NCBI GenBank assembly: GCA_009773515.1
Contig: WSXX01000025.1
Location: forward strand, 1-64,000
DNA length: 64,000 bases
Source: Bacteroidota bacterium
GTDB lineage: Bacteria; Bacteroidota; Bacteroidia; Bacteroidales; Lentimicrobiaceae
Reading direction: 5' to 3'
The notes under the pieces were generated by a model. It had not been told where the DNA came from. It saw nothing but the letters and a program-made list of their open reading frames with translations, and did not search any database. How positions within the stretch are numbered: the stretch's first letter is position 1; every line of letters begins with the position of its first letter. Positions 9,222 to 18,995 of this stretch are shown here, piece by piece. The position numbers were made by a program, and so were the translations under genes.

Positions 9222-9482
9222 ATCGCTCCCGCGCGTCCCCTGACGCGTGGCTTAGCGCCGCCCAACATAACCTTCCATCGCTCCCGCGCGTCCCCTGACG
9301 CGTGGCTTAGCGCCACCCCACATAACCTTCCATCGCTCCCGCGCGTCCCCTGACGCGTGGCTTAGCGCCGCCCTATATAACCTTCCATCGCTCCCGCGCG
9401 TCCCCTGACGCGTGGCTTAGCGCCACCCCATATAACCTTCCATCGCTCCCGCGCGTCCCTGACGCGTGGTTTAGCCCCGCCC
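9222..9482. repeat. GC hairpin array 1 (5 copies, about 54-bp period)
   Basis: Five units begin at about 9224, 9277, 9332, 9386 and 9441. Each has the hairpin CGCGTC-CCCT-GACGCG followed by GTGGCTTAGCGCCRCCC and a short AT-rich linker ending ATAACCTTCCAT. The last unit has a one-base loop deletion and runs up to the response-regulator stop codon. Confidence 0.95.
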
Positions 9483-9483
9483 C

Positions 9484-10176
9484 TCACTCTTTCACTATCA
9501 GCTTAAACCCGATACCATGCACATTAATCAGCTCAACGGTTTCATCATCCTTCAGGTATTTCCTGAGTTTGGCGATATAAACATCCATGCTGCGTGCATT
9601 AAAATAGCTATCGTCCTGCCATATTTTGTTCAGGGCATAGCTACGATCAAGCACATCGTTCAGGTTTTCGCACAGCAGTCGAAGCAGTTCATTTTCCTTT
9701 GAAGTCAGCCGTATCTCCACACCTTTGCGGGTAAGTGTTTGCCGGTTATAATCGAGGGTAAAGCTACCAATGGTAAAAATCCTGGAACCTTTGGTATCGT
9801 GCCCTGATCTGCGCAAAATGGCGCTTATCCGAAGCAGCAGTTCCTCCATGCTGAAAGGTTTGGTAAGATAATCATCGGCGCCGGCCTGAAATCCTTTCAG
9901 TTTATCCTCTTCGAGTGACTTGGCAGTTAGAAACAGAATGGGAATACTGCGGTCAACCTGCCTGATTTCGCGGGCGAGGGTAAAGCCATCTTTCACGGGC
10001 ATCATCACATCCACAATACAGAAATCGAACTGATCCTTCACAAAAAGATCATAAGCTTCCTGGCCGTTCACGCACAGGCGTGGGGCGTAACCTTTGGCTT
10101 CGAGGTAAGATTTAAGAATGTTACCCAGATTGCGGTCATCTTCTGCCAGCAATATCCGTACTTTTTCAGTTTCCAT
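9484..10176 (-). CDS. OmpR/PhoB-family response regulator
   Basis: This 230-residue protein has an N-terminal receiver domain (about 5-120) with the acidic pocket AEDD near residue 14, the phosphoacceptor Asp in CIVDVMMP (about 54), FLTAKS (Thr near 84) and GADDYLTKPF (Lys near 106). A winged-helix DNA-binding domain follows (about 135-228), with LTSKENELLRLL and RSMDVYIAKLRKYL. It is the probable partner of the sensor kinase whose gene lies 122 bp upstream on the same strand. Its regulon cannot be read here. Confidence 0.93.
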   Translation of the reverse strand: METEKVRILLAEDDRNLGNILKSYLEAKGYAPRLCVNGQEAYDLFVKDQFDFCIVDVMMPVKDGFTLAREIRQVDRSIPILFLTAKSLEEDKLKGFQAGADDYLTKPFSMEELLLRISAILRRSGHDTKGSRIFTIGSFTLDYNRQTLTRKGVEIRLTSKENELLRLLCENLNDVLDRSYALNKIWQDDSYFNARSMDVYIAKLRKYLKDDETVELINVHGIGFKLIVKE

Positions 10177-10298
10177 GGTATAAAAATTAAAATTTCAAAT
10201 TCGTGAAAGAACAGGGCAGGGCTAAATTCTGAAGCAGAGATTGTGCCTGCACACCCAGTAAACGTATTGATTTATAATTTGTTATTTCAAAATGATTT

Positions 10299-11867
10299 TC
10301 AATCCTGTGAAGTATTAAACGGCAGCCAGATTCTGAAAACAGAGCCTTTGCCGGGTTCACTTTCCACGCTCACTTCGCCGTGGTGTTTTTCCACGATAAA
10401 TTTAACATAACTAAGTCCGAGTCCAAAACCTTTAACATTATGCACATCGCCGGTAGGCACGCGGTAAAGTTTATCAAAAATCTTTTTCTGGTTGGCTTTA
10501 CTGATACCTGTGCCGTTATCGGAAATACTCACCTGAATGCCATCCCGTAAATTATCAGTTTCCACGGAAATAAGCGGCCTTTTCGGGGTGTATTTATTTG
10601 CATTATCGAGCAGGTTATTGATCACATTGGTGATGTGCATACGATCAGCAACCACCAGAGGATCGGAAGCATGAGGTTTAAAGGAGATACTGCCATCTCG
10701 GATTTCAACCTGTATAGAAATTTTGCGGATAACATCAGCAATCACTTCATGTAAATCAAGCGGTTCATTTCTGAGACTGAGTTGTCCTTTTTCAAGGATG
10801 GCTGTCTGAAGAATTTTTTCGGCAAGGACGCCAAGCCGTTTATTTTCCTGACTGATAATATCGATGTAAGAGTGAAGCAGTCCTTCTGTTTTGGGAACAT
10901 CGGGATCATTAAGCACTTCACAGGCCAGCGACACGGTAGAAATGGGAGTTTTAAACTCGTGGGTCATATTATTGATGAAGTCATTTTTCATCTCCGACAG
11001 CTTTTTCTGCCTCAGCATTGCGATAATAACCACAGCAAATGAAATGACGATAAGCAGCATAAGGGCAGCTGAAATAATCAGCATACCACTCATCTGAATC
11101 AGCAGGTAGCGGGTTTGCTGAGGGAAGTTAATCACCAGGAAGTCATGCGGAGGGTTGCTGTTTCCGGGAAACACAGGAAAAAACAAACCTTTACTCAGCA
11201 GTTGTTCGCGAAGTGCAGGGTCTTTTTCGATAACCATAATATTTCGCGATTGACTCATCACCCCAAAATCATAATCTGCTCTTATGCCTTTGGCTTTAAG
11301 GGCCTGAGAAATCAGGGTATCGAGGTAGCCGTAGGTAACCCGGGTCTCGATGTTTGGAATAAACGGAGAATTGAAAATCTCATCAAAAACCTGATTCAGC
11401 AGAAAAGCTTTTTTGCGGTTCAATTGACGGGCTCTTTCGCTCAGTTCGTTATTGCCGTTAATCTCTTCATGAGAACCCGGGAAGTCCATTACAGCAGAAT
11501 CAGATTTTTTCACCATTTTCCACTGATTATCTTCAAACACCTCGTCCCATTGTTGCTGCCGCTGATAATTAAACCCGGAAGTTCCGTCGTTGCGGGGCAT
11601 CTTACCGGTTTCGCGATAAATCAGATAATCGAGTGAATCAATGGCTTTCAGCAGGTTGGCATACTCGAGGTTTCTTTTTACCTGCTTCGACATTTCCGCT
11701 TTTTCAAGACCTTGCATCACATCGTGCATAGCATCGGCAACGCTCCGCTGAAAACTGGTTTCGCGCACCTCAACAGCGCTCCTTACCCAGTATGCCTGAA
11801 TACCGGTAAGCACAATCAGCGCCAGGCTAACCAGGATGGTAATAAGGAGTATCAGTTTGCGGTTCAT
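10299..11867 (-). CDS. Membrane sensor histidine kinase
   Basis: This 522-residue protein has a membrane segment at about 6-24, an extracytoplasmic sensor region of roughly 230 residues with no recognised fold, a second membrane segment at about 255-283, then HisKA with the phosphoaccepting His in NNMTHEFKTPIS (about 301). The HATPase domain has N (NNLLDNANKYT), G1 (ISDNGTGIS) and G2 (GFGLGLSYV) boxes. It is transcribed ahead of the OmpR-type regulator gene. The start at 11867 is supported by a -7 box TACCTTTG only 5 bp upstream, which implies a very short or absent leader. Confidence 0.92.
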   Translation of the reverse strand: MNRKLILLITILVSLALIVLTGIQAYWVRSAVEVRETSFQRSVADAMHDVMQGLEKAEMSKQVKRNLEYANLLKAIDSLDYLIYRETGKMPRNDGTSGFNYQRQQQWDEVFEDNQWKMVKKSDSAVMDFPGSHEEINGNNELSERARQLNRKKAFLLNQVFDEIFNSPFIPNIETRVTYGYLDTLISQALKAKGIRADYDFGVMSQSRNIMVIEKDPALREQLLSKGLFFPVFPGNSNPPHDFLVINFPQQTRYLLIQMSGMLIISAALMLLIVISFAVVIIAMLRQKKLSEMKNDFINNMTHEFKTPISTVSLACEVLNDPDVPKTEGLLHSYIDIISQENKRLGVLAEKILQTAILEKGQLSLRNEPLDLHEVIADVIRKISIQVEIRDGSISFKPHASDPLVVADRMHITNVINNLLDNANKYTPKRPLISVETDNLRDGIQVSISDNGTGISKANQKKIFDKLYRVPTGDVHNVKGFGLGLSYVKFIVEKHHGEVSVESEPGKGSVFRIWLPFNTSQD

Positions 11868-11872
11868 AGTTG

Positions 11873-11880
11873 CAAAGGTA
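11873..11880 (-). promoter_or_regulatory. -7 box TACCTTTG for the sensor kinase
   Basis: A perfect TAnnTTTG match on the minus strand ends 6 bp before the start codon, so the message would be nearly leaderless. Confidence 0.5.
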
Positions 11881-11966
11881 AGTGGGCAAATCGCACAAAG
11901 ACATGATGGTTAACATCTTTTAACGTTTATTTGGTTTCGTTAACAAGTCACACCTGCCTTGTGATG

Positions 11967-12113
11967 TAATTTTGTATCAGCATAAAAAACAGTACATATC
12001 TGTTTACTCATTGTGTTTTGTTTTATGTGTTGTGTGTGTGTGTGTTTAAATAAATGTTTTCTTAATGTGTTGTGCCCACAAAGTGCAGTTCCTCCCATAG
12101 GACTGCACTTTTT
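11967..12113 (+). ncRNA. Candidate small RNA: -7 box to intrinsic terminator
   Basis: TAATTTTG at 11967-11974 could start a transcript that ends at the hairpin AAAGTGCAGT/ACTGCACTTT (12080-12111) followed by a short T run. The roughly 130-nt interval contains a GT-rich microsatellite (about 12024-12045) and no convincing open frame. No clear -33 element is seen, and the hairpin may instead be a stray element, so this is only a candidate. Confidence 0.3.
12080..12113 (+). terminator. Intrinsic terminator-like hairpin
   Basis: There are 10-bp perfect arms (AAAGTGCAGT at 12080-12089 and ACTGCACTTT at 12102-12111) with a 12-nt loop, and the plus strand continues into TT. No gene precedes it on that strand, which is why a small RNA is considered. 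Confidence 0.5.
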
Positions 12114-12149
12114 GATTAAATAAACTTCCGGATTTTCCCGTCCGAGACG

Positions 12150-12500
12150 AATCCGTTCCCGCGCGTCCCCTGACGCGTGGCTTAACGCCGCCCTTACCAA
12201 TCCGTTCCCGCGCGTCCCCTGACGCGTGGTTTAACGCCACCCTGAATAATCTTACTGTATTCCCATACGCTCCCGCGCGTCCCCTGACGCGTGGTTTAAC
12301 GCCACCCTGAATAATCTTATTGTATTCCCATACACTCCCGCGCGTCCCCTGACGCGTGGTTTAACGCCACCCTGTATAATCTTACTGTATTCCCATACGC
12401 TCCCGCGCGTCCCCTGACGCGTGGTTTAACGCCACCCTGAATAATCTTTTTGTATTCCCGCACGCTCCCGCGCGTCCCCTGACGCGTGGTTTAGTGCTTA
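12150..12500. repeat. GC hairpin array 2 (6 copies, about 64-bp period)
   Basis: Units start at about 12154, 12204, 12268, 12332, 12398 and 12463. The core hairpin is as in array 1; the linker here reads CTGAATAATCTTACTGTATT and is itself highly conserved. A linker of this type reappears once inside array 5, at about 18789. Confidence 0.95.
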
Positions 12501-12689
12501 TAACACAATAGCCACTTCAGAAATTAGAAATTTTCTTGTTTTTACGCTTATAACCCTAAAAACTTAAAAAAAATCACTTTTTTTGTGGTTAAACTCCTAA
12601 AAAAAATCACGTCCAGTTTAAACAGAGCATATTAGGAAATTTATCAACAAGCCACAATTAAAGACAATAGCCTCTAAGGAGGTTAGAAA

Positions 12690-12854
12690 ATGGAACTTAG
12701 AAACCCGCCTGACCGACTAAATCTTTTGTTTGAAACTTTCATGTCTGGGTCAATCGGGCAGGTTAGATATTGGAAATTTCCCTATATCTTTAAGCCCTTA
12801 TTGAGCGCAACAAAAACCAGGAAAAAGCACAAAAACCAGTGGTTAATTTCATAA
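12690..12854 (+). CDS. Candidate 54-residue ORF with a strong Shine-Dalgarno, upstream of fbp
   Basis: ATG at 12690 is preceded by TAAGGAGG with good spacing, which is unusual in this phylum. The frame encodes 54 residues ([20 protein letters not shown] onward, a basic C-terminus ending NQWLIS) and stops at 12854, 62 bp before the fbp start. I recognise no family. It could be a leader peptide, an unrelated small protein or chance; an imperfect inverted repeat (AACCCGCCTGA / TCGGGCAGGTT) inside it argues that the segment may act as RNA structure instead. Confidence 0.2.
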
Positions 12855-12916
12855 CCTTAGCTAACCATCAACATAAAAACCGAAACAGTCACCACATAAA
12901 CCAACCACCATTTTAC

Positions 12917-13915
12917 ATGAAAACCCTTATACAGTTTATCAACGAAAAACAAGCAGATTTCCCTTACGCGACCGGCGAATTTACGCGGGTGCTCAACGAC
13001 ATCGGCATCGCAGCCAAGCTGGTCAACAGGGAGATAAACAAAGCCGGGCTTGCCGACATCAACGGATACTTTGGTTCAACCAACATACAGGGCGAAGACC
13101 AGAAAAAACTTGATGTATTTGCAAATGATTGCTTTTTGTCGGCCATGAGATATGGCGGCATGGTATGCGCGGTAGCATCAGAAGAAAACGATGAGTTATA
13201 CACCTACGACAATGCTTTTTCGGAGAAGGGCAAATATGTGGTAGCCATGGACCCGTTGGATGGCTCATCAAACATAGAAGTAAACGTCCCGATAGGCACA
13301 ATTTTCTCAATATACCGCCGTATAGGTGAATCGGGACCAGGAACGGTTGAAGACCTTTTGCAGCCGGGCAACAAGCAGATTGCGGCCGGGTACATTATTT
13401 ACGGATCATCAACCATGCTCGTATATTCAACGGGATACGGGGTCAATGGCTTCACACTTGATCCTTCCGTAGGTTTGTTTCTGCTCTCACATCCTGAAAT
13501 GACAATACCTGAAGGCGGGAACATCTATTCGATCAATGAGGCCAACTACATCTACTTTCATGAGGGCGTAAAAAAATACCTGAAATATTGCCAGGAAGAC
13601 GACAAAGAGACCAACCGGCCATACACAACGCGATACATTGGCTCGCTGGTAGCTGATTTTCACAGAAATCTGATCAGGGGAGGCATATACATCTATCCCG
13701 GCACGAGAAAAAATCCAAATGGCAAGCTCAGGTTATTGTACGAATGCAATCCCATCGCATTTCTGGCTGAACAGGCCGGTGGAAAAGCTTCTACAGGCTT
13801 TGAACGCATACTCGACATTCAACCCACTGAACTTCACCAGCGGGTACCTTTCTTTGTCGGCACACGCCACATGGTTGAAAAAGCCGAAGAGCTGATGCGG
13901 ATGTACTCCGAATAA
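12917..13915 (+). CDS. fbp: Fructose-1,6-bisphosphatase, class I
   Basis: This 332-residue enzyme hydrolyses fructose-1,6-bisphosphate to fructose-6-phosphate in gluconeogenesis. Visible signatures are the metal site [27 protein letters not shown] (split; D-P-L-D-G-S-S is diagnostic) near residue 113 and [21 protein letters not shown] near residue 270, the class I active-site region with its conserved Glu. I start at ATG 12917 ([10 protein letters not shown]) because the in-frame extension to 12839 has no family similarity. Length matches the class I family (about 330-340). GC hairpin arrays lie on both sides. Confidence 0.93.
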
Positions 13916-13935
13916 GCTTCCCATTTCAAACAATG

Positions 13936-14395
13936 CCGCTCCCGCGCGTCCCCTGAGGCGTGGTTTAACGCCAACCCTAAAAAAACCGCTCCCGCGCGTC
14001 CCCTGACGCGTGGTTTAGCGCCGCCCTCCAACAACCTTCCAGGTTTTCTTTCAACCTGGAAGGTTTTAAAATAGCAGCGTCCAACCTGAAAGGTTTAACC
14101 CAATCCCGAAAGCCCGAACCCTTTCCCATCCGCTCCCGCGCGTCCCCTGACGCGTGGTTTAGCGCCGCCCCCCAATAACCTTCCAGATTTTCTTTCAACC
14201 TGGAAGGTTTAAAAATGAAAACTCTCAAACCGTAATGTCTAAACCAACCCTTTCCCATCCGCTCCCGCGCGTCCCCTGACGCGTGGTTTAGCGCCAACCC
14301 TAAAAAACCCGCTCCCGCGCGTCCCCTGACGCGTGGCTTTGCGCCGCCCCCCAGTAACCTTCCAGATTTTCTTTCAACCCGTAAGGTTTAATCCC
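13936..14395. repeat. GC hairpin array 3 (5 copies) with AACCTTCCAGGTT hairpins
   Basis: GC units start at about 13937, 13988, 14131, 14261 and 14310. The first has GAGGCG instead of GACGCG, which breaks the stem. Between them lie copies of the second hairpin, AACCTTCCAGGTT / AACCTGGAAGGTT (for example 14033-14065), and a linker with CTCTCAAACCGTAA. It lies between convergent genes. Confidence 0.95.
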
Positions 14396-14420
14396 AATCC
14401 ATCAACGTTTCAGACAACAG

Positions 14421-14457
14421 AAAAGGCAGCCCGCTGATATTTAGCCGGGCTGCCTTA
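14421..14457 (-). terminator. Intrinsic terminator for the T9SS cargo gene
   Basis: There are 11-bp perfect arms AAGGCAGCCCG (14423-14433) and CGGGCTGCCTT (14446-14456). On the minus strand the stem runs into TTTTC, suitable for the gene at 14508-15728. Confidence 0.75.
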
Positions 14458-14507
14458 CTTATATCGGGAATCTTTCCCCGAAACAATCACTTTAAAATGT
14501 TCACCAT

Positions 14508-15728
14508 CTAACGCACAATCAGTCGGTGGGTTTCGGAATCACCTTTCGCACTGCGCAGAATCAGGTGATATATCCCCGGCTCAAGGTAAGAAACATCAAG
14601 TTTAAACTCATTATCAGCCAGTGGTCTGTTCAAGACTGATCTGCCGGCAAGGTCAGTGAGCGACAAATCTCCGCCTTCAAAACCGGGCTCATGAATCACA
14701 ACATTAACCCATGATGATGCAGGATTTGGATAAACAGCTGAAGTCCGGGTTTCAGGCTTTTCGACCGAAGTCTGCTGATAAGCAAGAAGAGAAAAGAGTG
14801 TATTATCACTTGCAATTTCTGCAATCCCATCGGGAAGCCAACCTTCGGTTATTGCTGAATCCAGGGTATTTACCATAACAAGTTTCGACTGGAAAAGGGT
14901 GTCAATACCGATAAACATATAATTGCCGGTTAACTGATCAAAACATGAAGATCCCCCCTGAATAAAAGGATACTGATCAAGTGATGCAATTTCTGTGAAT
15001 GAGCCCGAAGAGGTATTGACTTCAATGATCTTCCGGGTACTGAAAACGCCATTGGTATCCAGCTCGGTTTTCATTGAAAAAAGTTTATTCAGTGAATTAT
15101 CGTAATTAAGTCCGGTAAGGTAAAAATACAGATTATCGTCGGTAATGGGTGTTTTAGTCCACGTAAAAGGATTAGCCCTTACCTGCATTGCAAAGAGATT
15201 ATTAACACCATCACCATCGGGACCGGCATAATACAAAACTCCATCGTTTGAGTTAAAACCGATGGCTTCCACCACAAGTCCGATAATCCCGGGTTCGCTG
15301 ATTACACCGATAAGGCTGTCGGTTCCATCTTTGATTTCGTATTGTTTAACCAGAATTTGTTCATCAACCACATTCAGTGTATAGATTCTGCCAGTACTCA
15401 TATCAATTTCGGTGATATTTGACATAAGGGGATAGGGCGAAACTGTCCAGACATTGTCAGAGGTCTGGTAAGAGAGCAGTGAGTTCTGGCCTGAGGCGAT
15501 GGTATTCAGGTAATAACTTCCGCTGAATGAATTAAAGAGAGAAGAACCAAATAAATATGCTTCGGCGGGGACAGTCACAGAAGAAAGGATTGTTGTGTCA
15601 CCCGGCTGCCATTCAATGACGTCCAATGAATCGATCGGGTAGTTACTGCGGACACCGACCAGGCTAACCTGAGCAACGGCTGTGATAACAACAAAAAAGG
15701 AGAATATCAGTGTGTAAAAAGTTTTCAT
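14508..15728 (-). CDS. Secreted protein with T9SS type A sorting domain
   Basis: This 406-residue protein has a signal peptide (MKTFYTLIFSFFVVITAVAQ) and a C-terminal type IX secretion sorting domain of about 75 residues: YPNPASSWVNVVI, LTDLAGRSVL and ending YLEPGIYHLILRS...HRLIVR. The central 300 residues are beta-rich, with repeated strands of the form '..GxxYxlNvvDeqI.vkqYe', reminiscent of a beta-propeller, but I cannot assign a family. It is expected to cross the outer membrane by T9SS and be anchored or released. Flanked by hairpin arrays on both sides; a terminator lies downstream. Confidence 0.8.
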   Translation of the reverse strand: MKTFYTLIFSFFVVITAVAQVSLVGVRSNYPIDSLDVIEWQPGDTTILSSVTVPAEAYLFGSSLFNSFSGSYYLNTIASGQNSLLSYQTSDNVWTVSPYPLMSNITEIDMSTGRIYTLNVVDEQILVKQYEIKDGTDSLIGVISEPGIIGLVVEAIGFNSNDGVLYYAGPDGDGVNNLFAMQVRANPFTWTKTPITDDNLYFYLTGLNYDNSLNKLFSMKTELDTNGVFSTRKIIEVNTSSGSFTEIASLDQYPFIQGGSSCFDQLTGNYMFIGIDTLFQSKLVMVNTLDSAITEGWLPDGIAEIASDNTLFSLLAYQQTSVEKPETRTSAVYPNPASSWVNVVIHEPGFEGGDLSLTDLAGRSVLNRPLADNEFKLDVSYLEPGIYHLILRSAKGDSETHRLIVR

Positions 15729-15868
15729 GGCTTTAGGTTTAATTCATAATAACACACATAAAATCAATTTGTTTCTCAGAATAATTAAAAGCATTGCAAA
15801 GGATTAAAACATGACAAAATTCCTCATACAACCTTCAGGTATTTCTGCCATAAGCGGATTAGCTTTCC

Positions 15869-17000
15869 AGCGCCGCCCCTCAATAACCTTCCAGGTTTTC
15901 TTTCAACCTGTAAGGTTTAAAACCACCCATCCGCTCCCGCGCGTCCCCTGACGCGTGGTTCAGCGCCGCCGCCCAGATAACCTTCCAGGTTTTCTTCCAA
16001 TCTGGAAGGTTTAAAAATGAAAACTCTCAAACCGTAAGGTCTAAACCAACCCTTTTCCATCCGCTCCCGCGCGTCCCCTGACGCGTGGTTTAGCGCCGCC
16101 CCCAAATAACCTTCCAGGTTTTCTTCCAACCTGGAAGGTTTAAAACCACCCATCCGCTCCCGCGCGTCCCCTGACGCGTGGTTTAGCGCTGCTTCCCAAC
16201 AACCTTCCAGGTTTTCTTCCAATCTGTAAGGTTTAAAAATGAAAACTCTCAAACCGTAAGGTCTAAACCAACCCTTTCCCATCCGCTCCCGCGCGTCTCC
16301 TGACGCGTGGTTTAACGCCGCCCCCCAAATAACCTTCCAGGTTTTCTTTCAACCTGGAAGGTTTAAAAATGAAAACTCTCAAACCGTAAGGTCTAAACCA
16401 ACCCTTTCCCATCCGCTCCCGCGCGTCCCCTGACGCGTGGTTTAGCGCCGCCGCCCAAATAACCTTCCGGGTTTTCTTTCAACCTGAAAGGCTTAAAACC
16501 ACCCATCCGCTCCCGCGCGTCCCCTGACGCGTGGTTTAGCGCTGCTTCCCAACAACCTTCCAGGTTTTCTTTCAACCTGTAAGGTTTAAAACCACCCATC
16601 CGCTCCCGCGCGTCCCCTGACGCGTGGTTTAACGCCGCCACCCAAATAACCTTCCAGGTTTTCTTTCAACCTGTAAGGTTTAAAAATGAAAACTCTCAAA
16701 CCGTAAGGTCTAAACCAACCCTTTCCCATCCGCTCCCGCGCGTCCCCTGACGCGTGGTTCAGCGCCGCCACCCAAATAACCTTCCAGGTTTTCTTCCAAT
16801 CTGGAAGGTTTAAAAATGAAAACTCTCAAACCGTAAGGTCTAAACCAACCCTTTCCCATCCGCTCCCGCGCGTCCCCTGACGCGTGGTTCAGCGCCGCCG
16901 CCCAAATAACCTTCCGGGTTTTCTTTCAACCTGTAAGGCTTAAAACCACCCATCCGCTCCCGCGCGTCCCCTGACGCGTGGTTTAGCGCTGCTTCCCAAC
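15869..17000. repeat. GC hairpin array 4 (10 copies) in alternating long and short composite units
   Basis: Units start at about 15931, 16061, 16154, 16283, 16413, 16507, 16600, 16731, 16861 and 16955. Each GC hairpin is followed by an AACCTTCCAGGTT-type hairpin and then by one of two tails: a long one containing GAAAACTCTCAAACCGTAAG (unit about 130 bp) or a short one reading AAAACCACCCATC (unit about 93 bp). The order is L S L L S S L L S. It fills the space between two divergent genes and stops about 90 bp before pgi. Confidence 0.95.
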
Positions 17001-17048
17001 AAAAGCCACTTTCACACGTTTGACTACAGAAATTTAAAAATGCTGACG

Positions 17049-17056
17049 TATCTTTG
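17049..17056 (+). promoter_or_regulatory. -7 box TATCTTTG for pgi
   Basis: A perfect TAnnTTTG match 31 bp before the ATG at 17088, in the only repeat-free stretch between array 4 and the gene. Confidence 0.55.
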
Positions 17057-17087
17057 CACCCATCCAAAACCACAATACCCTTAAAAC

Positions 17088-18440
17088 ATGACAAACTTAA
17101 AAATCAACATCGACAAGCTGGAAGGATTTGTTACCAGGGAATCTGTATATGCATTTGAGCAGCAGCTGGCACTTCATCAGGGTGCATTGCTGAACAAGAC
17201 CGGCAAGGGCAACGATTTTCTGGGCTGGATAGGCCTTCCCGATGAAATAGATGATAAAATGCTTGCTTCCATTGAGCAGGATGCCCGTGAAATACGCGAA
17301 AAAGCCGACATATATGTTGTAATAGGAATTGGCGGTTCATATCTTGGTGCCCGTGCGGTGATAGAAGCCCTGCAGCACAATTTTTCCGCATTACTCAGCA
17401 GTAAAGACCGCAAATCGCCGCTGGTAGTTTATGCCGGAAACAACATTTCGGAGGACTATCTTGCAGATCTTATCGATATACTTGACAAACACGACTATGC
17501 CCTTACGGTGATATCCAAATCGGGCACAACCACTGAACCTGCTATTGCTTTCCGGATATTGCGTCGTCATCTCGAAAAAAAATACGGACAGGCTGAAGCC
17601 CGCAAACGCATAATAGCCATAACCGACAAAGCAAAAGGTGCGCTCAAAGGGCTGGCTGATGCCGAAGGATACAAAACTTATGTAGTGCCCGACGATGTAG
17701 GAGGCCGTTATTCAGTACTTACACCTGTGGGGCTGCTTCCAGTAGCGGTGGCAGGTTTCGACATCCGCAAATTTGTTGAAGGTGCCAGAGCTATGAAACA
17801 GTTGGTTACAACAGCAAAAACCATCGACGAAAACCCTGCCTTCAAATATGCTGCAGCGCGCAATGCACTTTACGGATCGGGCAAGCCGGTTGAAATCATG
17901 GTCAATTACCAGCCATCGCTCATCTACATCACCGAATGGTGGAAACAGCTCTACGGCGAAAGTGAAGGTAAGCAGAACCGTGGCATATTCCCGGCCGGAG
18001 TAAGCTTCACCACAGATCTGCACTCCATGGGGCAATATGTTCAGGAAGGTTTGCGCATTATTTTCGAGACTGTCCTCAGCATTGAAAAACCAAAGCGCGA
18101 ACTATCAGTTCCTGCCGAAGACGATGATGCAGACGGGCTTAACTTTGTATCAGGAAGAAGAATACACGAAGTAAACCGTCAGGCAGAGTTGGGCACATTG
18201 CTCGCTCATGTTGACGGACAGGTTCCCAACATAGTCATCAGCCTGCCCGAAGTAAATGAATACAACCTGGGGCAGCTGCTTTATTTCTATGAATTTGCCT
18301 GTGCTCTTTCGGGATATGTGCTCGATGTAAATCCATTTGATCAGCCGGGAGTAGAAGCCTACAAGAAAAACATGTTTGCATTGCTAGGCAAACCGGGCTT
18401 CGAAAAGCAAACCGAAGAACTGAGAAAACGCCTGGAATAA
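17088..18440 (+). CDS. pgi: Glucose-6-phosphate isomerase
   Basis: This 450-residue enzyme interconverts glucose-6-phosphate and fructose-6-phosphate in glycolysis and gluconeogenesis. Motifs: VVIGIGGSYLGARAVIEAL near residue 80, VISKSGTTTEPAIAFR near residue 145 (phosphate-binding SxSGxT), and YGESEGKQNRGIFPAG near residue 290 with the catalytic Glu. The final region runs VNPFDQPGVEAYKKNMFALL, the family's C-terminal signature. At 450 residues it is the shorter bacterial form. It forms a sugar-phosphate pair with fbp 3 kb upstream, although a T9SS cargo gene and arrays separate them. Confidence 0.95.
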   Translation: MTNLKINIDKLEGFVTRESVYAFEQQLALHQGALLNKTGKGNDFLGWIGLPDEIDDKMLASIEQDAREIREKADIYVVIGIGGSYLGARAVIEALQHNFSALLSSKDRKSPLVVYAGNNISEDYLADLIDILDKHDYALTVISKSGTTTEPAIAFRILRRHLEKKYGQAEARKRIIAITDKAKGALKGLADAEGYKTYVVPDDVGGRYSVLTPVGLLPVAVAGFDIRKFVEGARAMKQLVTTAKTIDENPAFKYAAARNALYGSGKPVEIMVNYQPSLIYITEWWKQLYGESEGKQNRGIFPAGVSFTTDLHSMGQYVQEGLRIIFETVLSIEKPKRELSVPAEDDDADGLNFVSGRRIHEVNRQAELGTLLAHVDGQVPNIVISLPEVNEYNLGQLLYFYEFACALSGYVLDVNPFDQPGVEAYKKNMFALLGKPGFEKQTEELRKRLE

Positions 18441-18454
18441 GCGTGACACCCACG

Positions 18455-18995
18455 GGTTTAAAACCATCCGCTCCCGCGCGTCCCCTTACGCGTGGCTTAG
18501 CACTGCCCAAAATAACCACCCATCCGCTCCCGCGCGTCCCCTGACGCGTGGCTTAGCGCTGCCCAAAATAACCTTCCATCCGCTCCCGTGCGTCCCCTGA
18601 CGCGTGGCTTAGCGCTGCCCAAAATAACCACCCATCCGCTTCCGCGCGTCCCCTGACGCGTGATTTAGCGCTGCCCAAAATAACCTTCCATCCGCTCCCG
18701 CGCGTCCCCTGACGCGTGGCTTAGCGCTGCCCAAAATAACCACCCATCCGCTCCCGCGCGTCCCCTGACGCGTGGTTTAACGCCGCCCTGAATAATCTTA
18801 CTGTATTCCCATCCGCTCCCGCGCGTCCCCTGACGCGTGGCTTAGCACTGCCCAAAATAACCACCCATCTGCTCCCGCGCGTTCCCTGACGCGTGGCTTA
18901 GCACTGCCCAAAATAACCACCCATCTGCCTCCCGCGCGTCCCCTGACGCGTGGCTTAAACGCTCCCGCGCGTCCCCTGACGCGTGGCTTTACTCT
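18455..18995. repeat. GC hairpin array 5 (10 copies, about 56-bp period)
   Basis: Units start at about 18469, 18525, 18581, 18637, 18693, 18749, 18814, 18870, 18927 and 18960. Linkers mostly read CCCAAAATAACCACCCATC or CCCAAAATAACCTTCCATC. Single-base variants occur in the stem (TTACGCG at 18485, GTGCGTC at 18588) and loop (GTTCCCTG at 18880). One unit has the linker of array 2. Confidence 0.95.

What the first reader, a model, noticed from the sequence alone, without database searches (positions are those of the whole stretch)
9222..18995. About 36 copies of a GC-rich hairpin repeat fill five of six intergenic gaps over 10 kb
The core hairpin CGCGTC-CCCT-GACGCG followed by GTGGYTTAGCGCCGCCC appears in five arrays of 5, 6, 5, 10 and 10 copies (my counts by eye), between 9.2 and 19.0 kb and, apart from a fragment at 53.68 kb, nowhere else in the window. 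Each array has its own period (about 54, 64, mixed, 93/130, 56 bp) set by a different but internally conserved linker, so arrays were amplified locally after seeding. Coding sequences are untouched. Copies are GC-rich in an AT-leaning genome. I know of no named family with this sequence; function (transcript stabilisation, nucleoid or protein binding, or selfish REP-like spread) is open.
Basis: seen in the sequence. Interest (0 to 1): 0.78.

Follow-up and report, generated by a model that had tools for sequence, protein, structure and literature searches.

The report
Bacteroidota REP hairpins in tandem arrays
The repeats look like a newly described family of REP hairpins, short DNA hairpins that go with a tamed transposase (RAYT), copied head-to-tail into gaps between ordinary genes; comparing them with relatives suggests which features that transposase class recognises.

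Summary
In detail: 36 copies, all + strand, in arrays of 5, 6, 5, 10 and 10, filling five of six gaps. They are not confined to this region: about 102 copies genome-wide, read in 37 clusters on 22 contigs.

The element is most likely a REP of the kind served by RAYT group 5 (TnpA-Y1 subclass 2.6), whose hairpins are published as "atypical". In three congeners the same hairpin directly flanks such a gene. Anatomy: GYT foot (97 of 102), 10-nt arm, G·T wobble (99 of 102), 4-nt loop, and a basal pair that covaries through all four Watson-Crick types. The same plan with other stems recurs beside such genes across the phylum; hold-out 10 of 20 loci against 1 of 19 controls.

Unusual: 65 of 65 close pairs in this genome are head-to-tail, and no subclass-2.6 RAYT was found in the draft. 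I infer RAYT-dependent seeding, then tandem duplication and exchange of units between arrays. Direct arrays also stand beside RAYTs in two congeners, so loss of the RAYT need not be the cause. A host function is unproven.

The parts
9224..9488 (+). Array 1: 5 REP copies, period 54-55 bp, between the amino-acid-kinase gene and the 3' end of the response-regulator gene (both on -). The fifth copy (core at 9452) has a 3-nt loop.
12154..12508 (+). Array 2: 6 copies, spacing 49 then 65 bp, in the divergent gap between the histidine-kinase and fructose-1,6-bisphosphatase genes.
13937..14355 (+). Array 3: 5 copies, spacing 50/144/129/50 bp, in the convergent gap after the fructose-1,6-bisphosphatase gene.
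15932..17000 (+). Array 4: 10 copies, spacings 93-94 and 129-130 bp, in the divergent gap before pgi; its linkers hold a second palindrome (CCTTCCAGGTTTTCTTTCAACCTGGAAGG).
18469..18995 (+). Array 5: 10 copies, spacing mostly 56 bp, after pgi; holds one unit (core at 18757) whose 31-bp linker is 97% identical to array-2 linkers.
13988..14019 (+). Anatomy of one copy: foot GCT 13988-13990; 10-nt 5' arm 13991-14000; loop CCCT 14001-14004; 3' core arm GACGCG 14005-14010; wobble G13994 with T14011; covarying basal pair 13992/14013; possible outer partner AGC 14017-14019.

Best explanation
Each copy is a REP: a non-autonomous mobile DNA hairpin of the kind recognised as single-stranded DNA by a RAYT (HUH/Y1 transposase) of group 5 / subclass 2.6. 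The RAYT probably reads a GYT foot, the basal half of the stem with its conserved G·T wobble, and a short pyrimidine-led loop; foot and wobble would set which strand is read. Such a RAYT seeded REPs around the genome. In this lineage the REPs then multiplied without inversion: units of REP plus linker were duplicated in tandem (slippage or unequal recombination between direct hairpin repeats) and passed between neighbouring arrays in the same orientation, in intergenic DNA where they do little harm. Shown by computation: anatomy and covariation, RAYT flanking in congeners, recurrence of the plan beside RAYTs, the all-direct layout, linker sharing. Inferred: recognition and cleavage by the RAYT, the duplication mechanism, and near-neutrality for the host. 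I hold the REP identity at about 0.9 and the RAYT-independent amplification step at about 0.5.
For: The same hairpin flanks subclass-2.6 RAYT genes in G406:C56 (inverted copies on both sides), G411:C36 (one on each side, one of them a variant with a compensated innermost pair) and G412:C41 (many copies); 3 of 3 of these proteins pass the NCBIfam cut-off for REP-associated tyrosine transposase. GYT 97 of 102, G·T 99 of 102, basal pair C-G 67, G-C 25, A-T 4, T-A 2; 36 of 40 cluster votes paired against a permutation mean of 14.5, maximum 26 in 100,000. RAYT relatives in 9 of 19 genus genomes and 67 of 296 phylum genomes, with hairpins of the same plan beside many; hold-out 10 of 20 against 1 of 19. 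REP arms follow RAYT distance (Mantel r 0.35, 0 of 20,000 permutations, 26 hand-picked loci). No copy seen in the pgi-flanking DNA held from 12 congeners, so the arrays are lineage-specific. 65 of 65 neighbour pairs direct; linkers shared between arrays.
Against: No subclass-2.6 RAYT was found in the own genome. No GTAG-type tag. No inverted pairs in the kept set, whereas REPs usually pair inverted. Direct arrays also stand beside RAYT genes in G400:C151 (4 copies, spacing 51-52) and G399:C21, so the direct layout does not by itself show RAYT-independent growth. Only about half of the hold-out loci are positive, and five of those ten look chance-like by eye. Folding as DNA gives nearly equal energies for the two strands of three copies. 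No cleavage was measured.
Confidence: 0.7

Rival explanations
1. A live subclass-2.6 RAYT is present in G000 but missing from the draft assembly, and it, not replication or recombination errors, makes the direct arrays, for example by copying REP-linker-REP segments.
For: 8 of 37 clusters lie within 1 kb of a contig end, as do copies of the second REP family at C27:3, C31:60 and C51:77758 (contig lengths). That second family also lacks a RAYT in G000. Whole units recur in distant arrays. Direct arrays lie beside intact RAYT genes in G400:C151 and G399:C21.
Against: The assembly is 97.2% complete and neither search found a fragment. In G412, near its RAYT, the window-type hairpin forms inverted pairs about 75 bp apart, a layout not seen in G000.
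Confidence: 0.35
2. The copies act as RNA: hairpins in transcripts that stabilise mRNA ends or attenuate transcription, and are kept for that.
For: The + strand folds better as RNA than its shuffles (z -4.2 to -4.6) than does the - strand (z -1.4 to -1.8) in three copies. Arrays 3 and 5 start 22 and 29 bp after the stops of two + strand genes.
Against: 8 of 29 classifiable clusters lie in divergent gaps and elements occur in either orientation to the nearest genes. There is no T-run after the hairpin in the copies listed. Covariation and the G·T pair are equally expected for a DNA hairpin, and RAYT flanking points to DNA. No RNA data.
Confidence: 0.15
3. Protein-binding arrays (nucleoid, centromere or gyrase sites) maintained by selection in this region.
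For: 36 of about 102 copies sit within 10 kb, all in one orientation, as a binding array might.
Against: The other copies are spread over 21 further contigs; the basal pair changes by compensation, which matters to a hairpin more than to a double-stranded site; no copy seen in pgi-flanking DNA of 12 congeners.
Confidence: 0.05

Closest known systems
Hairpins flanking TnpA-Y1 subclass 2.6 / RAYT group 5 genes in Bacteroidetes (PMC6006769)
   Same: Bacteroidota; flank subclass-2.6-type genes; no GT[AG]G; copies elsewhere in the genome.
   Different: The main text calls them only atypical and gives no consensus; here the GYT foot, 10-nt arm, G·T wobble and loop are defined. Its supplementary Table S1 may list sequences; I could not read it.
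GTAG-tagged REPs, BIMEs and REPINs (PMC3733652, PMC8266576)
   Same: Short intergenic imperfect palindrome with a tag 5' of the stem and a stem irregularity; many copies; sub-families with compensated stem pairs; some clusters of singletons reiterated in tandem with flanking DNA.
   Different: Tag is GYT, not GTAG; [quoted passage not shown] no cognate RAYT found in the genome.
CGTC-tagged REPs (PMC3733652)
   Same: Reported from Bacteroidetes among other phyla; the letters CGTC occur.
   Different: Here CGTC is inside the paired stem, not an unpaired terminal tag; first stem pairs are not A/T; no CCA tail.

Membership tests
REP (RAYT-associated repetitive extragenic palindrome) | Short (20-40 bp) imperfect palindrome | tested here: met
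   About 9 paired positions, 4-nt loop; basal pair covaries through four types
REP (RAYT-associated repetitive extragenic palindrome) | Extragenic, many copies | tested here: met
   102 places; 0 of 37 clusters overlap an ORF of 180 aa or more (crude caller)
REP (RAYT-associated repetitive extragenic palindrome) | Family flanks a RAYT gene | tested here: met
   In three congeners: G406:C56, G411:C36, G412:C41
REP (RAYT-associated repetitive extragenic palindrome) | Cognate RAYT in the same genome | tested here: inconclusive
   None found in G000, but the draft breaks at repeats
GTAG-tagged REP super-family | GTAG or GTRG tag at the foot | tested here: not met
   Foot is GCT or GTT in 97 of 102
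BIME / REPIN | Inverted pairs of REPs | tested here: not met
   0 of 65 close pairs inverted in G000 among kept copies; met near the RAYT in G412
Hairpins of RAYT group 5 / subclass 2.6 | Partner protein with NH[LIV]H, WQ, YIH[QN]NP | tested here: met
   G411 and G406 match all three; G412 has DHVH
Hairpins of RAYT group 5 / subclass 2.6 | Strand-specific cleavage by the RAYT | not testable with these tools
   Needs biochemistry
CGTC-tagged REP super-family | Unpaired terminal CGTC, A/T first stem pairs, CCA tail | tested here: not met
   CGTC is in the paired stem; basal pairs are mostly C-G or G-C
CRISPR array | Unique spacers between repeats | tested here: not met
   Linkers within an array are near-identical
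Intrinsic terminator | Hairpin followed by a T-run | tested here: not met
   Hairpin is followed by TG[GCTA] and mixed sequence
Any Rfam family | Match at the gathering score | tested here: not met
   0 matches in the 64-kb window

The most novel reading that the evidence does not exclude
GYT-foot, wobble-marked hairpins form a third tag-defined REP super-family, spread through Bacteroidota and co-evolving with group-5 RAYTs; and in this lineage such a REP has outlived its RAYT and grown to the largest population counted in its genus by strand-polar, RAYT-independent tandem copying and exchange between neighbouring gene gaps.
Probability: 0.33. Interest if true: 0.68.

Novelty: new variant of a known kind. 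Interest (0 to 1): 0.52.

Why it matters
It gives the poorly described Bacteroidota RAYT class (group 5 / subclass 2.6) an explicit candidate substrate: a GYT foot, a 10-nt arm, a G·T wobble at a set place and a short pyrimidine-led loop. What this class recognises becomes testable with a few oligonucleotides. The genome may also be a natural experiment on REPs that persist and multiply without their transposase and without the usual inverted doublet.

Tried and rejected
Rejected readings. Exclusive 10-kb cluster: false, about 102 places. Wide conservation of this core: with up to one mismatch only G000 itself of 395 phylum genomes; the exact 21-mer in genome contigs gave two single hits, Streptomyces and Paraburkholderia, and that tool may leave out the own genome. 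The five strong Y1 genes of G000 as partners: I read only the one on C46, which has the YIKNQEEHH motif like subclass 1.2, is below both NCBIfam cut-offs and is bracketed by a different palindrome. G000's other RAYT-like proteins (C13, C4, C14, C61, C50) as partners: they have F where subclass 2.6 has W (FQ in 2 of 5); the hairpin scan of the C13, C4, C14 and C61 loci showed none; C50 gave one chance-like descriptor hit and an unrelated hairpin. An outer 'double foot' (GYT with ARC): predicted by folding of + strands and exact in 42 of 102 copies (34 GCT-AGC, 8 GTT-AAC), but not among the leading column pairs, so left open. CRISPR, terminator and CGTC-REP: see membership table. Integron attC was considered from recalled motifs only and dropped. 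A text search for the peptide HASGDARER (recalled) found nothing.

Against my reading. Genus table for hairpin and RAYT: 7 both, 2 hairpin only (G000, G409), 2 RAYT only (G400, G404), 8 neither; Fisher p 0.023; but in G395, G398, G399 and G407 the RAYT seen is flanked by other hairpins or none. In one search, which used GNT, 3 of 9 positive genus loci (L124, L125, L132) and some phylum hits look like chance; pgi controls gave 5 of 13 and the one order locus 0 of 1. GAT entered the foot only after I had seen the set; quoted hold-out figures use GYT alone (with GNT: 11 of 20 against 4 of 19). The hold-out loci are the next 20 of the list, but several come from genomes already seen; 17 of 19 controls are from hold-out genomes. 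positives convincing to the eye: 5 (L204, L209, L213, L214, L218). Folded DNA energies of the two strands are nearly equal. Tandem reiteration of REPs with flanking DNA is already reported for some families (PMC3733652).

Rows dropped. One search gave 113 places; I dropped 8 with three mismatches, 2 opposite-strand ones on C9 and 1 at a contig edge, leaving 102. Five of the dropped (C9 4581, 4595, 4762, 4776; C38 60527) lie on the opposite strand, overlapping or abutting kept copies through shared CGCG letters or truncated copies; counting them would break the 65 of 65. The fifth copy of array 1 (loop deletion) is not in the 102. Of 20 genus RAYT matches 18 were scanned for hairpins. The tree holds 51 of 68 loci; the Mantel test 26.
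Full report
WHAT IS THERE. The window holds 36 copies of a GC-rich hairpin, all on the + strand, from 9224 to about 18995, in arrays of 5, 6, 5, 10 and 10. They fill five of six gaps between genes for an amino-acid kinase, a response regulator, a histidine kinase, fructose-1,6-bisphosphatase, a protein with a secretion sorting tail, phosphoglucose isomerase and an outer-membrane-type protein. The fragment at 53.68 kb is only GACGCGTGG with no hairpin. Rfam has no match in the window.

GENOME CENSUS. The window is contig C30 of a 5.03-Mb, 67-contig draft, 97.2% complete, without a name; Bacteroidota by its genes (inference). With up to two mismatches the 18-mer core occurs 62 times forward and 40 reverse, reversed-pattern control 0. 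I kept 102 copies with flanks (of 113 places; see Tried and rejected), in 37 clusters on 22 contigs. By a crude ORF caller 0 of 37 clusters overlap an ORF of 180 aa or more; of 29 classifiable clusters 14 are in tandem, 8 in divergent and 7 in convergent gaps, against 26, 5 and 5 for gaps of the window itself. Each of 21 multi-copy clusters has one orientation, and 65 of 65 neighbour pairs within 300 bp are head-to-tail.

ANATOMY. The core CGCGTC/GACGCG is nearly invariant (each pair intact in 93 to 101 of 102). Outward, -1/+1 is a G·T wobble in 99 of 102, -2/+2 is C-G in 101, and -3/+3 varies but stays paired: C-G 67, G-C 25, A-T 4, T-A 2, other 4. With one vote per cluster and state, 36 of 40 votes are Watson-Crick against a permutation mean of 14.5 and a maximum of 26 in 100,000; it leads 192 column pairs in mutual information, 1.22 bits, the next 0.45. 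Just 5' of the 10-nt arm stands GCT (76) or GTT (21). The loop is CCCT in 88. Three copies were folded: as RNA the + strand beats its shuffles clearly (z -4.2 to -4.6) and the - strand weakly (-1.4 to -1.8); as DNA the z-scores differ less and the energies hardly. So the tag and wobble, more than the folding energy, give the element its polarity.

THE PARTNER. With up to one mismatch the core is in 1 of 395 phylum genomes drawn, G000 itself. A looser core is in 10 of 60 relatives: 9 of 19 genus genomes including G000, and one of another family. Genes with a weak Y1-transposase match (PF01797) lie beside it in three congeners: G406:C56 with inverted copies on either side, G411:C36 with one copy on each side (one has its innermost pair changed from C-G to T-A), and G412:C41 among many copies. 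A broken RAYT remnant also lies beside copies at G406:C33. The three intact proteins (186-189 aa) pass the NCBIfam cut-off for REP-associated tyrosine transposase, 3 of 3. Their motifs are those that PMC6006769 (passages and one section read) gives for subclass 2.6, Bertels group 5, except DHVH in G412. That paper finds the subclass mostly in Bacteroidetes and says its genes are flanked by atypical structures without GT[AG]G, found by manual inspection, with copies elsewhere in the genome.

SAME PLAN, OTHER STEMS. A profile of five such proteins finds relatives in 9 of 19 genus genomes at E 1e-10 and in 67 of 296 phylum genomes at E 1e-30. Beside many of them lie other hairpins of the same plan: foot G[CTA]T, 10-nt arm, basal half such as NGCGC/GTGCN or NCCGC/GTGGN with the G·T in the same place, loop such as TGC, TCC, TCT or TCCT. 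Among 37 distinct arm pairs chosen by a rule (foot GNT, inner five pairs Watson-Crick) the stem letters differ widely, and the fourth pair from the base is G·T in 23. Descriptor hits (GNT foot): genus RAYT loci 9 of 18 (shuffles 1.0), phylum RAYT loci 17 of 30 (2.0), other Y1 loci 3 of 27 (2.8), pgi loci 5 of 13 (1.8). Hold-out, GYT only: 10 of 20 RAYT loci against 1 of 19 other stretches (one-sided Fisher 0.002), though only five of the ten convince by eye; among wobble hairpins with any foot GCT is commonest, 12 of 73, the next foot having 4. REP arm distance follows RAYT distance (Mantel r 0.35, 0 of 20,000, 26 hand-picked loci). The three RAYTs flanked by CGCGTC hairpins form one clade, sister in the tree to L202 and L182, which carry GGCGCGCGTC and GGCGCGCGTT hairpins.

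WHAT IS ODD. G000 has the most copies (99, at most 20 in any other genus genome searched) but no subclass-2.6 RAYT: none at E 1e-10, and at E up to 1 only other RAYT-like or IS200-like genes. Because 8 of 37 clusters lie within 1 kb of a contig end, a gene lost in a gap cannot be excluded. G000 also holds 56 places of a second REP (AGCGGCATT-NNN-AATGCCGCT), the family that flanks a RAYT in G400:C86; at least six pairs of it are inverted doublets 116-117 bp apart, like REPINs. The window family is head-to-tail in G000, while near the RAYT of G412 it forms inverted pairs about 75 bp apart. [quoted passage not shown] And in G400:C151 and G399:C21 RAYT-flanking REPs of other sequence also stand in direct arrays, so a direct layout may belong to this REP class and need not follow from loss of the RAYT.

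HOW THE ARRAYS AROSE. In the pgi-flanking DNA held from 12 congeners no copy was seen (one flank is short or missing in some), so arrays 4 and 5 are lineage-specific; the other gaps were not compared. Linkers within an array are alike, but whole units recur between arrays in the same orientation: array 2 and array 5 (31 bp, 97%), array 3 and array 4 (95-96 bp, 97%). Tandem duplication plus recombination or template switching between direct hairpin repeats explains this without a transposase; RAYT-driven copying of REP-linker-REP segments is the rival.

FUNCTION. In E. coli the RAYT reads one strand of the REP, needing GTAG and a stem irregularity (PMC8266576, passages). By analogy the GYT foot and G·T wobble are the likely cues here; this is inference. 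A benefit to the host is not shown. RNA roles are possible for arrays 3 and 5, which follow + strand genes, but clusters in divergent gaps speak against a general one.

LITERATURE. Searches of the held open-access library showed no description of this tag or family. Bertels et al. 2017 was not among the listings and is known to me only as cited in PMC6006769. Supplementary Table S1 of PMC6006769, which may list subclass-2.6 hairpins, could not be read. RepRanger (PMC12306157, passages) does not use the word transposase; its table lists three Bacteroidota genomes. Novelty is claimed only against these.

VERDICT. A real feature, a known kind (REP), new in sequence, in its defined tag and, for this genome, in its layout.

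Noticed in passing
G000 contigs C2, C4-C6, C14, C15, C17, C27, C31, C43, C51, C56, C64 and others: A second REP population, AGCGGCATT-NNN-AATGCCGCT, 56 places, with at least six inverted doublets 116-117 bp apart; the same family flanks a subclass-2.6 RAYT in G400:C86.
   Followed up: partly
window 14035-14386 and 15887-16938; 40 places in G000: A palindrome CCTTCCAGGTTTTCTTTCAACCTGGAAGG inside the linkers of arrays 3 and 4 and elsewhere; 28 forward and 12 reverse, control 0.
   Followed up: partly
L033 1275-1306 and 1945-1976 (G000:C46): A Y1 transposase gene like subclass 1.2 is bracketed by two identical copies of a 32-nt palindrome (TCATCTGCTAGCGGCTTAATGCTAGCAGATGA), although that subclass is listed as having no REP.
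   Followed up: no
L117 3879-7214 (G000:C60): An ORF of 1111 aa that looks like a DNA methyltransferase/restriction protein contains a Y1-transposase-like stretch and a PLSAGEAPLSA-type repeat.
   Followed up: no
L097 5684-6746 (G412:C41): The window-type REP forms inverted pairs about 75 bp apart, reiterated at 153-162 bp, about 2.6 kb from its RAYT gene.
   Followed up: partly
L137 (G406:C33:14203-14349): A broken RAYT remnant lies next to copies of the window-type REP at 14122 and 14167.
   Followed up: no
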